Positions 42,998-53,936 of a stretch of DNA of 57,791 nt are shown one piece after another. Both the position numbers and the translations under genes were made by a program. The notes beneath the pieces are model-generated. The model was not told where the DNA came from. It ran no database searches and saw only the letters and a list, made by a program, of their open reading frames with translations. How positions within the stretch are numbered: position 1 is the stretch's first letter; every line of letters begins with the position of its first letter. This stretch comes from a virus, in the IMG/VR virus record IMGVR_UViG_3300003323_000218, positions 1 through 57,791 of that record; one strand, given 5' to 3'.

Positions 42998-43353
42998 GTT
43001 CTCGCCTGCAGTTCGCGCATCACGTCCTCCGCACTGCGCGCCACGAATGCCACGCAGCCGGCCCGCTGCGCAGCTTGGATAAATTCCGCTTGTTCTGGAG
43101 TGACAACGCCAGAGGGGCGCTTCACTTCACAAAAGATGGCGCGACCGTCGGCCATGTAGCCGCAGATATCTGACAAGCCGGGGAATCCGAACTTGATCCA
43201 TTGCGAGGCGCCGCTTTTACGCACAAGCTGGCCAGATCCGGTATTCATGCGCCAAACCTTGGCGACGGCCGGATGAAGTTCCAGCGCGCGCAGCACGGCG
43301 CGAAGGACTTGCGCCTCTTTTGGCTCAGGACGAGTAAGACGCAGCGGTTTCAT
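42994..43353 (-). CDS. VRR-NUC domain nuclease
   Basis: This is a 119-residue single-domain protein: the PD-(D/E)XK core has SDICGYMADGRAIFCEVKR (Asp, then Glu-x-Lys) after a conserved KFGFPGLSD. The early part ALELHPAVAKVWRMNTGSG is typical too. Stand-alone VRR-NUC proteins of phages cut structured DNA, such as junctions or flaps. Next to replication and Ref genes it may act in recombination. Confidence 0.85.
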   Translation of the reverse strand: MKPLRLTRPEPKEAQVLRAVLRALELHPAVAKVWRMNTGSGQLVRKSGASQWIKFGFPGLSDICGYMADGRAIFCEVKRPSGVVTPEQAEFIQAAQRAGCVAFVARSAEDVMRELQART

Positions 43354-43652
43354 CGGCCGATCCTTTCCATCACCATGGCTAACATCTCCATCTGCGTGCC
43401 GTATTTCGCCTCAAAGCGGGCCTTATTCGGATGCACAGCGATGCGCCTGAGAGGGTCGGTATCGTCCTGCTGATGATGAGGACCGCACAGCGGCAAAACG
43501 AGCTTATGGGCGCCAGGCTTCGTGCGACCATCGATGTGATGGATGGATACGAACGGATTGGTTATGCCGTCAAGCAGGCAGGCGATACAGCCGATGCCGG
43601 CCATGTCGTGCCAGAGTGCCTTTTCGGCTTTCGTTGGAGCGCGGCCTTTCAT
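43350..43652 (-). CDS. Ref-type HNH nuclease (recombination-enhancement family)
   Basis: The start at 43652 (MKGRAPTKAEKALWHDMAG) gives 100 residues. It carries IGCIACLLDG, SIHHIDGRTKPGAHKLV, LPLCGPHHQ and VHPNKARFEAKYG, the pattern of P1 Ref C-terminal domain proteins, which are RecA-dependent HNH nucleases. Position with VRR-NUC fits recombination. A TnpB element has inserted just upstream. Confidence 0.85.
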   Translation of the reverse strand: MKGRAPTKAEKALWHDMAGIGCIACLLDGITNPFVSIHHIDGRTKPGAHKLVLPLCGPHHQQDDTDPLRRIAVHPNKARFEAKYGTQMEMLAMVMERIGR

Positions 43653-43690
43653 GCGGCTACCCTCACCGCAATTGGGAGAGCCGCATTCGA

Positions 43691-43720
43691 TTGAATGTGG
43701 TCGTAAAGTGAGGATATAAT
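43691..43720 (+). promoter_or_regulatory. Sigma-70 promoter of the RHH-TnpB cassette
   Basis: TTGAAT (43691-43696), 18 bases, TATAAT (43715-43720, perfect). Transcription would begin at about 43727, at or next to the RHH ATG (43728), so the mRNA may be leaderless. Confidence 0.7.
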
Positions 43721-43741
43721 TGTGTGCATGAAGCGCACACA
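43721..43741 (+). promoter_or_regulatory. Perfect inverted repeat over the RHH start codon
   Basis: TGTGTGC (43721-43727) and GCACACA (43735-43741) surround ATGAAGC. It covers the expected start point of transcription and the ATG. It could be the RHH protein's own operator, or an RNA hairpin hiding the start codon. Confidence 0.55.
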
Positions 43742-43859
43742 TATATTCCTTCCAGAGCCGGTCATAAATAGACTAAAGGCTCTTTCCGAAAAAACTGGAC
43801 TGCCCGTCGCCGAACTGATTCGGCGCGCCATTGATGAATATCTGAAAAAGCAAAAGTGA
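43728..43859 (+). CDS. Ribbon-helix-helix (CopG-type) regulator, 43 residues
   Basis: It reads MKRTHIFLPEPVINRLKALS then EKTGLPVAELIRRAIDEYL: a short beta strand, helix, turn (TGLPVAE), helix, the minimal RHH fold that binds DNA as a dimer through the paired strands. Its TGA overlaps the GTG of tnpB (GTGA), so the two are translationally coupled. Probably represses the shared promoter or cooperates with TnpB. Confidence 0.75.
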   Translation: MKRTHIFLPEPVINRLKALSEKTGLPVAELIRRAIDEYLKKQK

Positions 43860-44917
43860 TTCTTGTCTATCGTTACCGCGTGAAGTCGCTTAACGGCTTG
43901 CTGAACAAGCAGGCTCGCGCGTGTAACTACGTCTGGAATTTCTGTAACGACACACAGAAGCACGCGATTAAATGGGGAAGGCTTTGGCCGAGTTGTTTTG
44001 ACCTGAATAATCTGACAGCCGGAAGTAGTAAGGAACTGAGCCTGAATGCAAACACAATCAATCAAATTTGCAGGCAATATACGAGTTCGCGAAATCAGAA
44101 TAAACGGCCATACCTTCGATATCGTGGCAAAAGGTCTCTTGGTTGGATTCCGATTAAAGGCTGCGATCTGAGGCGCGAGGGAGATGCATTCCGCTTCTAC
44201 GGAAACACTTTCCGCGTCTTCAATAGCCGCCTGCTCCCTGACGGTAAGATCAAGGATGGCACGAACTTCTCTCAAGACAGTCGTGGAAACTGGTTTTTGA
44301 ACATAGTTATTGATGTTGCGGAAGCTGAGCGGCGCGAACCCGTTCGCGGTATTGGCATTGACTTGGGCCTGAAAGATTTCGCAACGCTGTCCACTGGCGA
44401 GAAGATTGGGAATCCGCATCACTTCCGCGAACTTGAGGAAAAGTTGGCGACGGCACAGCGCGCCCATAAGCGCCGCCAAGTCACCAATATCAATTCCCGT
44501 ATTGCCAATGCGCGGCGCGACTTCCACCACAAGCTCTCGACCCGCATCATTCGAGAGTTCGATTACATCGCCGTGGGCAACGTGAACGCGGCAAGACTCG
44601 CCAAAACCAGCATGGCGAAGTCCGTTCTTGATGCAGGCTGGTCGTCCTTCCGAGACATGCTCCGCTATAAAGCGATTGCGCACGGCGCTTGGTTTGAAGA
44701 GGTGAATGAGCGATTTACCACGCAGGCGTGCTCGTGCTGTGGAGTTATCTCCGACAGTAGTCCGAAAGGTAGGGCCGACCTGAATAAGAGGCTTTGGACT
44801 TGTGGCGAATGTGGCGTTACGCATGATAGGGATCAGAATGCTGCTCTCAATATCTTGAAAAAGTTCAGTCTCGGCTGCGGACATGCAGCCCCTGCTCAGG
44901 GAGTCCTAGCCCTTTAG
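43856..44917 (+). CDS. tnpB: TnpB-family RNA-guided nuclease homologue (copy 1)
   Basis: This is a 353-residue protein with GTG start. N-terminal part: VYRYRVKSLNGLLNKQARAC and YLRYRGKRSLGWIPIKG. RuvC-I has Asp in GIGIDLGLKDFATLSTG; RuvC-II region reads FDYIAVGNVNAARLAKTSM, with Gly where Glu is normal; RuvC-III has HDRDQNAALNILKK with Asp. The zinc ribbon is CSCCG…CGECG. TnpB is guided by an RNA from the element's right end. Whether this protein cuts is uncertain because of the missing Glu. A copy sits at 52863. Confidence 0.85.
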   Translation: MILVYRYRVKSLNGLLNKQARACNYVWNFCNDTQKHAIKWGRLWPSCFDLNNLTAGSSKELSLNANTINQICRQYTSSRNQNKRPYLRYRGKRSLGWIPIKGCDLRREGDAFRFYGNTFRVFNSRLLPDGKIKDGTNFSQDSRGNWFLNIVIDVAEAERREPVRGIGIDLGLKDFATLSTGEKIGNPHHFRELEEKLATAQRAHKRRQVTNINSRIANARRDFHHKLSTRIIREFDYIAVGNVNAARLAKTSMAKSVLDAGWSSFRDMLRYKAIAHGAWFEEVNERFTTQACSCCGVISDSSPKGRADLNKRLWTCGECGVTHDRDQNAALNILKKFSLGCGHAAPAQGVLAL

Positions 44918-45167
44918 GGCTGGAAGATGTCAACCGCTCGCCCTGGTCGACAATACGAATGCCGCGAGATACGCCACGAGCCACCTTGATGTATCCCTTG
45001 CGCTTGATGGCTTGGACATGAACTTGAGCCGCATTCCACGATGTCCAGCCGAAGTGCGTAGAAATCTCATCGCGAGTCGGCGGAAAGCCTTTTTCGGCGA
45101 GGTGTTCGCGAATGAAGTCGAGGACGGCCTGCTGCTTGGCGGTCAATGGGGCAGAGTAATTTCTCAT
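44865..45167 (-). CDS. LexA-like DNA-binding protein with a chimaeric C-terminus
   Basis: The start at 45167 (MRNYSAPLTAKQQAVLDFI) overlaps the previous stop (ATGA). Residues 1-78 are the LexA winged helix (EKGFPPTRDEISTHFGWTS, VHVQAIKRKGYIKVARGVS, RGIRIVDQGERL); there is no peptidase domain. After ERL the frame runs into the TnpB element and adds 21 foreign residues (TSSSPKGLGLPEQ…). Before insertion it would have ended GERLR. The protein may still bind DNA. Confidence 0.75.
   Translation of the reverse strand: MRNYSAPLTAKQQAVLDFIREHLAEKGFPPTRDEISTHFGWTSWNAAQVHVQAIKRKGYIKVARGVSRGIRIVDQGERLTSSSPKGLGLPEQGLHVRSRD
44880..44933 (+). ncRNA. Right end / probable guide (omega) RNA scaffold of TnpB copy 1
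   Basis: The end of tnpB and the next 16 bases share GCTGC, CTGCTCAGGGAGTC, an AGCCC-TTTA-GGGCT hairpin and GAAGATGTCAA with copy 2. In TnpB systems this part, with the adjoining flank, forms the guide RNA. The guide would start at 44934: CCGCTCGCCCTGGTCGACAA. Confidence 0.55.
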
Positions 45168-45631
45168 GCGGCGCTCCGCTGATCTCGCCACGCCATGAAA
45201 GGCTTGCGATAGAGTTGATGGAATAAATCAGCCGCGGCATTATTCGTGTCGAGTTCGCGGCGCGATGCAATATCGCAACCATTTAAAATCTCTTGCCTTG
45301 CCTCTTCTTCCGTAAACGGCGGCCAATCACCGGGGGTGAGCGAGGAAAGCCATTCTTGAAACATCGGATCGGCGCAAAATTGCACCGCCAGCCTGCAAAG
45401 CGGCCCGATAGGTTCCTTCGGTTGATCTTTAATGGTTTCTTGCTGAGCTGCCTGTAGTGATGCTTCCTGAGTCAACGCGGCAATAGCGCAGGACGTGCCG
45501 CGCGCACCAAACAGCGCGTAAGCGTCCTTGGCAAAGCGCGGATCGAACTCGAATGTGATTCGAAGCGAACCGTCCGCCATATCTTTAACGCCGGCACTAG
45601 TGGCTTGAATGATTGCGGCTTCTTGACTCAT
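45164..45631 (-). CDS. Phage replication-region protein, unknown function
   Basis: The start at 45631 (MSQEAAIIQATSAGVKDMA) follows aaggattgagccc; 155 residues. The opening DGSLRITFEFDPRFAKDAY is followed by a helical part. The rest is acidic and helical (PFTEEEARQEILNGCDIAS, NNAAADLFHQLYRKPFM). It is coupled to the LexA-like gene. No family recognised. Confidence 0.6.
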   Translation of the reverse strand: MSQEAAIIQATSAGVKDMADGSLRITFEFDPRFAKDAYALFGARGTSCAIAALTQEASLQAAQQETIKDQPKEPIGPLCRLAVQFCADPMFQEWLSSLTPGDWPPFTEEEARQEILNGCDIASRRELDTNNAAADLFHQLYRKPFMAWRDQRSAA

Positions 45632-52866: not shown

Positions 52867-53936
52867 AGGGGCGGGACTCCCTGAGCAGGGGCTGCATGTC
52901 CGCAACCGAGACTGAAACTTTTCAAGATATTGAGAGCAGCATTCTGATCCCTATCATGTATAGCGCCACATTCGCTACAAGTCCAAAGTCTCTTATTCAG
53001 GTCGGCCCGACCTTTTGGACTGCTGTCGGAGATAGCTCCGCAGCACGAGCACGCCTGCGTGGTAAATCGTTCATCCACCTCCTCAAACCAAGCCCCGTGC
53101 GCAATCGCTTTGTAGCGGAGCATGTCTCGGAAGGACGACCAGCCAGCATCAAGAACAGACTTCGCCATGCTGGTTTTGGCGAGTCCGGCCGCGTTCACGT
53201 TGCCCACGGCGATGTAATCAAACTCTCGGACGATGCGCGTGGAGAGCTTATGGTGGAAATCGCGCCGCGCATTGGCAATGCGGGCGTGAATATTGGCAGC
53301 CTGGCGCTTCTTTCTGGCGCGCTGCGCAATTGCGAGCCTTTCCTTAAGTTCGTAGAAATGGCGCGGGTTGGCGATCTTCTCGCCCGTGGACATGGCGGCG
53401 AAGTCCTTCAATCCGAGATCAATACCGACGCCTTGTATGGGCTCGCGGCGATCAGCCTCTGCAACCTCAATGACGATGTTGAGAAACCAATTGCCGCGAC
53501 TGTCTCGGGAAAAGTTCGTGCCGTCCTTGATCTTGCCTTCCGGCAGGGGGCGGCTGTTGAACACGCGGAAGGTATTACCGGCAAAGCGGAAGGCATCACC
53601 TTCGCGCTTCAGGTCGCAACCCCTAATTGGAATCCATCCAAGGGACTTTTTGCCACGATAACGAAGGTACGGCTTTTTGTGCTGGCTTCTAGACTTTGCA
53701 TACCGCAAGCAAATTTGTCCAATTGTGTTTGCATTCAAACCAAGTTCTTTGCCGCTCCCTGCGGTCAGGTAGCTAAGGTCAAATCCAGTCAACCATTTTC
53801 GGTTCCATCGCAGAGCATCCTTTTGTCTGTCATTGCAATAGTTCCAGACAAAGTTGACCGCACGCGCCTGCTTATTCAGCAAGCCGTTCAGAGACTTCAC
53901 GCGGTAACGATAGACAAAGATCACTTTTCGAATCAC
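52849..53936 (-). mobile_element. Minimal TnpB element, copy 2 (tnpB plus right end)
   Basis: Removing these 1,088 bases restores an in-frame small membrane protein gene. On the - strand it starts exactly at the tnpB GTG and ends at GAAGATGTC. It has no RHH gene, no promoter and no TnpA. The right end shares the hairpin and GTC(AA) end with copy 1. The guide would start AAAATACAATCCAGC. Ends may shift by a few bases. Confidence 0.65.
52863..53936 (-). CDS. tnpB: TnpB-family RNA-guided nuclease homologue (copy 2)
   Basis: This is a 357-residue protein, close to copy 1 along its whole length (same GIGVDLGLKDFA-like RuvC-I block, here GVGIDLGLKDFAAMSTG). It has FDYIAVGNVNAAGLAKTSM again with Gly at the RuvC-II Glu site, CSCCG…CSECG ribbon and HDRDQNAALNILKSF with the RuvC-III Asp. 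It lacks the upstream RHH gene. A GTG further in (after IRK) aligns with the start of copy 1. No own promoter is seen; it runs against the surrounding genes. Confidence 0.8.
   Translation of the reverse strand: MIRKVIFVYRYRVKSLNGLLNKQARAVNFVWNYCNDRQKDALRWNRKWLTGFDLSYLTAGSGKELGLNANTIGQICLRYAKSRSQHKKPYLRYRGKKSLGWIPIRGCDLKREGDAFRFAGNTFRVFNSRPLPEGKIKDGTNFSRDSRGNWFLNIVIEVAEADRREPIQGVGIDLGLKDFAAMSTGEKIANPRHFYELKERLAIAQRARKKRQAANIHARIANARRDFHHKLSTRIVREFDYIAVGNVNAAGLAKTSMAKSVLDAGWSSFRDMLRYKAIAHGAWFEEVDERFTTQACSCCGAISDSSPKGRADLNKRLWTCSECGAIHDRDQNAALNILKSFSLGCGHAAPAQGVPPL

What the first reader, a model, noticed from the sequence alone, without database searches (positions are those of the whole stretch)
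43691..44933. RHH-TnpB cassette with shared promoter and coupled translation
A 43-residue ribbon-helix-helix protein overlaps tnpB by GTGA, with a near-consensus promoter and a perfect 7-bp inverted repeat placed over the transcription start and start codon. This looks like a self-regulated RHH-TnpB unit in a phage without TnpA, so it may be kept for a job other than transposition (for example defence against competing phages or control of gene expression).
Basis: partly seen in the sequence, partly recalled or inferred. Interest (0 to 1): 0.75.

Follow-up and report, generated by a model that had tools for sequence, protein, structure and literature searches.

The report
Self-regulated RHH header on TnpB transposon
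A tiny DNA-binding protein gene sits in front of, and overlaps, an RNA-guided DNA-cutting enzyme gene in a jumping element carried by a bacterial virus; the same small gene recurs in front of related and quite different DNA-cutting genes elsewhere, which suggests a portable off-switch for selfish genes.

Summary
A 43-aa ribbon-helix-helix (RHH) gene (43728-43859) overlaps tnpB (43856-44917) by GTGA, behind a TATAAT placed for a leaderless start. The pairing is not chance: 15 distinct loci (window included) in phages and Betaproteobacteria keep RHH + tnpB, all with the same 4-base ATGA/GTGA overlap. RHH is under purifying selection (median dN/dS 0.17). The 7-bp inverted repeat is real but only marginally beyond chance and mostly not conserved as a palindrome.

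The unit is a TnpA-less IS200/IS605-type element: sharp right end at 44933, strongly covarying omega-RNA scaffold, relatives with left ends and a TCATC junction motif at unrelated sites, and an intact alternative RuvC triad (D169, E285, D326). The window's own left end is divergent and only inferred.

New here: RHH is scattered on the TnpB tree (10 changes), does not co-vary with TnpB, and the same RHH family heads other cassettes (three other TnpB types, GIY-YIG and HNH/endonuclease VII genes, small cargo). Best explanation: a portable autorepressor header limiting nuclease expression. DNA binding and repression are untested. Closest precedents: Arc/CvkR regulators of V-K CAST, and I-TevI autorepression.

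The parts
43663..43703 (+). inferred, divergent left end: TCACC (variant of the TCATC junction motif) then a hairpin CCGCATTC-GATT-GAATGTGG
   Evidence: Not found by the left-end profile built from relatives. Inferred by eye from spacing and a predicted 8-bp stem. Relatives carry TCATC 9-14 nt before the left-end anchor in 63 of 69.
43691..43720 (+). promoter TTGAAT-18-TATAAT, placed for a leaderless transcript
   Evidence: -10 position conserved in 26 of 35 RHH loci, 15 of 17 of those with TnpB cargo
43721..43741 (.). 7-bp inverted repeat over the presumed transcription start and start codon; candidate RHH operator
   Evidence: shuffle fraction 0.015; mostly not conserved as a palindrome
43728..43859 (+). 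43-aa ribbon-helix-helix gene
   Evidence: Pfam RHH_3 E 1.6e-11; homologues; pN<pS in 90 of 91 pairs
43856..43859 (+). GTGA overlap of RHH stop and tnpB start (translational coupling, inferred)
   Evidence: ATGA/GTGA in 15 of 15 distinct main-clade RHH-TnpB loci
43856..44917 (+). tnpB, 353 aa, RuvC triad D169, E285 (alternative position), D326
   Evidence: predicted fold matches TnpB/Cas12f
44871..44933 (+). 3' scaffold of the omega-RNA and right end of the element (GATGTCAA)
   Evidence: three covarying hairpins in 22 sequences; right-end motif in 98 of 106 relatives; end coordinate
44934..44953 (+). presumed guide (flanking phage sequence, the end of a LexA-like gene)
   Evidence: sequence directly after the right end; guide use inferred from known TnpB biology; 20-nt length assumed

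Best explanation
It is a TnpA-less IS200/IS605-type element inserted between two phage genes. A leaderless promoter near its left end drives one transcript: RHH, then tnpB by stop-start coupling, then the omega-RNA at the 3' end. The RHH dimer binds DNA around the -10 box and start codon and shuts off its own promoter, so TnpB stays low in a resident element. In a new cell without RHH there is a brief burst of TnpB, which cuts element-free target sites and favours copying and retention. The promoter-plus-RHH unit is a header that is gained, lost and swapped between TnpB elements and other selfish or accessory genes. Shown: gene order, overlap, promoter position, selection on RHH, element ends, RNA covariation, intact catalytic residues, scattered RHH distribution. 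Inferred: DNA binding, autorepression, burst on entry, guide use, movement in trans.
For: RHH+tnpB at 15 distinct loci with ATGA/GTGA in 15 of 15. -10 at the leaderless position. In RHH-less relatives the -10 sits instead before tnpB itself (65 of 82; 19 of 26 after collapsing similar upstreams), against 0 of 16 before tnpB in the RHH set, so tnpB there depends on the RHH promoter. Left-end anchor to tnpB is 208-234 nt with RHH (7 loci) and mostly 79, range 54-146, without (62 loci): RHH adds about its own length. RHH selection: median dN/dS 0.17 (41 of 91 pairs with finite dS), pN<pS in 90 of 91. RHH label needs 10 changes on the TnpB tree, at least 6 forced by supported branches; RHH and TnpB distances uncorrelated, Mantel r -0.10, n=13. 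The same RHH family heads other cargo. Right end and omega-RNA. Active site.
Against: No binding, transcript or repression data. The palindrome is marginal (1.5% of shuffles) and mostly not conserved. The window's left end is not recognised by the relatives' profile, and no empty site was found. Nearly all close TnpB relatives lack RHH (92 of 112 examined have none upstream, 3 cut short), so RHH is dispensable. The second TnpB copy in the same window (52872-53921) has no intact RHH yet an open tnpB.
Confidence: 0.62

Rival explanations
1. RHH is a protein partner of TnpB (or of a TnpA supplied in trans), helping it find or protect DNA rather than acting on the promoter.
For: Conserved adjacency and coupled translation at 15 loci would suit a complex.
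Against: RHH and TnpB distances do not co-vary (Mantel r -0.10, n=13). The same RHH family heads unrelated cargo. RHH is absent from most close TnpB relatives.
Confidence: 0.12
2. A toxin-antitoxin-like addiction pair: TnpB is the harmful part, RHH the regulator whose loss releases it.
For: RHH antitoxins autorepress short operons (recalled); weak NCBIfam similarity to a RelB-type antitoxin (23.5 bits, cut-off 50).
Against: RHH is the bare 43-aa DNA-binding domain with no toxin-binding tail; the second tnpB copy persists without intact RHH.
Confidence: 0.1
3. The phage has domesticated the pair for defence against other phages or for control of genes in trans.
For: Kept open in a phage; phage TnpB relatives with regulatory roles (TldR) exist (PMC13418256, abstract start seen in the listing).
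Against: The presumed guide is simply the flanking phage DNA, and its first 10 nt occur once in the record, at that place. The catalytic triad is intact, unlike TldR. The same units sit at unrelated sites in bacteria and phages.
Confidence: 0.08
4. RHH is a chance passenger caught between the promoter and tnpB, without regulatory effect.
For: Most close relatives do without it.
Against: Purifying selection, repeated association and an invariant overlap.
Confidence: 0.08

Closest known systems
IS200/IS605-family TnpB-only elements (IS1341-type; name recalled)
   Same: tnpB, right end ending in TCAA-type sequence, 3' omega-RNA overlapping the gene end, TAM-like motif beside the left end of relatives, no tnpA
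   Different: 43-aa RHH gene inserted between promoter and tnpB; alternative RuvC-II glutamate
Arc_1/Arc_2 (RHH) and CvkR regulators of type V-K CAST (PMC9938897, passages read)
   Same: small RHH proteins beside a TnpB-descended effector (cas12k) in a transposon; CvkR and cas12k are leaderless; CvkR represses cas12k
   Different: There the regulators lie in reverse orientation upstream of cas12k; here RHH is in the same operon and overlaps tnpB by 4 bases
I-TevI autorepression in phage T4 (PMC2988022, passages read)
   Same: a selfish nuclease of a phage is kept low by repression at its own promoter
   Different: There the nuclease itself is the repressor; here a separate upstream protein is proposed
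TnpBs with alternative RuvC-II glutamate (Ealt; PMC10711439, passages read)
   Same: E six residues before the first zinc-finger CxxC (ERFTTQACSCC)
   Different: D-L-G rather than the D-P-G of the Fanzor-related group; here with an RHH header

Membership tests
IS200/IS605-type TnpB element | TnpB protein with RuvC and zinc-finger domains | tested here: met
IS200/IS605-type TnpB element | structured right end with omega-RNA scaffold ending at the element boundary | tested here: met
   98 of 106 relatives have the right-end motif; covariation in 22 sequences; window matches
IS200/IS605-type TnpB element | left end with hairpin 3' of a TAM-like motif | tested here: inconclusive
   clear in relatives (90 hits; TCATC 63 of 69 at 9-14 nt); window's own left end not found by profile, only a divergent candidate
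IS200/IS605-type TnpB element | Y1 TnpA for autonomous movement | tested here: not met
   no PF01797 match in the record; so at most a non-autonomous element
IS200/IS605-type TnpB element | empty site in a relative | tested here: inconclusive
   36 Ref-nuclease loci fetched; none held the LexA-like neighbour; LexA-like query found no relative
RHH (MetJ/Arc/CopG-type) DNA-binding proteins | RHH domain by profile | tested here: met
   PF12651 E 1.6e-11, above its cut-off
RHH (MetJ/Arc/CopG-type) DNA-binding proteins | binding to an operator | not testable with these tools
   needs an in vitro or reporter assay
TldR (nuclease-dead TnpB regulators) | lost RuvC catalytic residues | tested here: not met
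   D169, E285 (alternative site), D326 invariant in 35 aligned TnpBs
V-K CAST with Arc regulator | cas12k and Tn7-like genes; regulator in reverse orientation | tested here: not met
   RHH and tnpB are in the same orientation in the window and overlap by 4 bases; Tn7-like genes themselves were not searched for
type II toxin-antitoxin | antitoxin with toxin-binding region and a toxin partner | tested here: not met
   43-aa bare RHH domain; partner is TnpB; weak sub-cut-off RelB-like hit

The most novel reading that the evidence does not exclude
A portable regulatory header, made of a leaderless promoter plus a 43-aa RHH autorepressor ending in ATGA, has been attached many times independently to selfish nucleases of phages and transposons (several TnpB types, GIY-YIG and HNH/endonuclease VII genes) and to phage accessory genes. 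It gives each the same behaviour: off when resident, on when entering a new cell.
Probability: 0.45. Interest if true: 0.72.

Novelty: new variant of a known kind. Interest (0 to 1): 0.55.

Why it matters
How TnpB, the ancestor of Cas12, is kept from harming its host is not well understood. A separate, swappable repressor gene in the same operon would give a directly testable answer, link TnpB elements to homing endonucleases and CAST regulators, and offer a ready-made switch. In the held papers I found no report of RHH-TnpB operons (searches; subscription papers and preprints are largely missing).

Tried and rejected
Empty site: searched with the Ref-like and LexA-like neighbours. The LexA-like query found nothing and none of the 36 Ref loci held it. 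Rfam search of 43600-45000 gave only sub-threshold matches. PADLOC gave Cas12f-type matches for TnpB, as expected of relatives, and nothing for RHH. Blast of RHH against phages: no match; plasmids: 2 weak matches. Exact junction pattern in 399 genomes of the order: only the genome already known, 2 places. RHH profile in 398 genomes of the phylum at E<=1e-9: only that genome, so the unit is rare. L143 matched the junction pattern by chance. Nuclease-dead TldR-like role rejected on the active site. RHH remnant before the second copy: only a weak hit (E 2.9e-4) and no convincing DNA alignment; left open. The tree is a quick one without bootstrap, and 7 loci that were partial or duplicate were left out of it. 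Rows dropped elsewhere: 2 of 37 RHH loci (no upstream, or duplicate). In one search a second peak (64 of 82, and 9 of 16 in the RHH set), 10 nt inside the gene, comes from the coding ATGAT and was not counted.

Full report
What is there. The window is a 57,791-base virus record. At 43728-43859 (+) lies a 43-aa RHH gene whose stop overlaps the GTG start of tnpB (43856-44917) by GTGA. Pfam assigns RHH_3 (E 1.6e-11) to the first and Cas12f1-like_TNB plus OrfB_IS605 to the second.

Is the pairing more than chance? Relatives of TnpB were fetched from viral contigs (23 loci) and bacterial genomes (the best 80 of 114); others came from a junction pattern and RHH searches. Fifteen distinct main-clade loci, the window included, carry RHH directly before tnpB, and 15 of 15 overlap by ATGA or GTGA. 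A further locus, L032, is cut just upstream. An RHH-only search of 299 genomes of one family gave 13 matches in 9 genomes: of 5 strong ones (E<1e-19), 4 are followed by tnpB and 1 by what looks by eye like a partition gene; none of the 8 weaker ones is. RHH is under purifying selection: median dN/dS 0.17 over the 41 of 91 pairs with finite dS, and pN<pS in 90 of 91, the exception being an identical pair.

Promoter and coupling. A -10-like hexamer 5-9 nt before the RHH ATG occurs in 26 of 35 RHH loci, against 1-8 of 35 at 13 other offsets. That spacing would put the start of transcription at or next to the AUG, so the message is probably leaderless (inferred). In RHH-less relatives the -10 stands before tnpB (65 of 82; 19 of 26 collapsed), and in the RHH set before tnpB in 0 of 16 (see the caveat in Tried and rejected). 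Thus RHH has been set between promoter and tnpB.

The inverted repeat. It is perfect, and 1.5% of dinucleotide shuffles equal it. A TGTG/CACA repeat across the start codon recurs in a few loci (L174, L175, L034, L159) but most of 35 show nothing comparable. It is a candidate operator, not a demonstrated one.

The element. The right end at 44933 is shared by both TnpB copies of the window and by relatives: 98 of 106 have the motif, 77 exactly 20 nt after the stop; 4 of the 98 lie inside the gene and are spurious. The last 62 nt fold into three hairpins with pairs kept through many changes in 22 sequences. Left ends were found in 90 relatives, 12 of 16 RHH-bearing ones among them, but not in the window, L145, L146 or L158. 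In 63 of 69 anchored left ends a TCATC lies 9-14 nt upstream, with no conservation further out, the mark of an insertion junction. The window has TCACC and a divergent hairpin at 43663-43703, which I read as a drifted left end. There is no TnpA in the record, but 5 of the 6 bacterial genomes searched have Y1-type genes.

Active site. The canonical RuvC-II glutamate is replaced by glycine (aligned to ISDra2 TnpB). E285, six residues before the first CxxC, fits the alternative site described in PMC10711439 (passages). D169, E285 and D326 are invariant in 35 sequences. The AlphaFold model (mean pLDDT 82.6) matches TnpB and Cas12f structures first. The enzyme is probably active.

Distribution of RHH. 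On a quick tree of 105 TnpBs the RHH label needs 10 changes, at least 6 forced by supported branches; shuffled labels need 14.2 on average. RHH and TnpB distances do not correlate (Mantel r -0.10, p 0.71, n=13). In 69 viral RHH loci, which include near duplicates, 11 are directly followed by tnpB, among them three of other types (L184, broken by a stop; L218; L234). Two are followed by GIY-YIG genes overlapping by ATGA (L185, L188), and three by HNH or endonuclease VII genes (L229, L230, L238). Others are followed by beta-barrel, pentapeptide or unassigned genes. The next genes of 20 of the 69 loci were searched in Pfam; the rest were only read by eye, and no background rate for phage RHH genes is known.

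Mechanism. I commit to an autorepressed, leaderless RHH-tnpB-omega-RNA operon in a non-autonomous IS200/IS605-type element. RHH would limit the nuclease in a resident element and allow a pulse on entry to a new cell. The precedents are the CAST regulators, which include small RHH proteins and leaderless expression (PMC9938897), and I-TevI autorepression (PMC2988022). Binding, repression and the pulse are inferences.

Novelty. No held paper found describes RHH-TnpB operons. Given the CAST precedent I rate it a new variant of a known kind. The wider portable-header reading is the more interesting possibility.

Noticed in passing
52872-53921 (-): Second tnpB copy, 83% identical to the first, with the same right end but a different presumed guide and no intact RHH upstream (only a weak remnant-like hit); its 3' part is much closer to the first copy than its 5' part, as after recombination.
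   Followed up: partly
L185:2629-3378, L188:2638-3228: Phage GIY-YIG genes headed by the same RHH family with a 4-base ATGA overlap.
   Followed up: partly
L171, L173: RHH relatives heading a lipoprotein-like gene, with a long TATGTGCTA...TAGCACATA inverted repeat around the promoter; a better operator candidate than the window's.
   Followed up: no
L159: RHH of this family upstream of what looks by eye like a ParA-type partition gene, without TnpB.
   Followed up: no
43350-43652 (-) and 44940-45191 (-): The element lies between a Ref-like RecA-dependent nuclease gene and a LexA-like DNA-binding gene whose end it appears to alter.
   Followed up: partly
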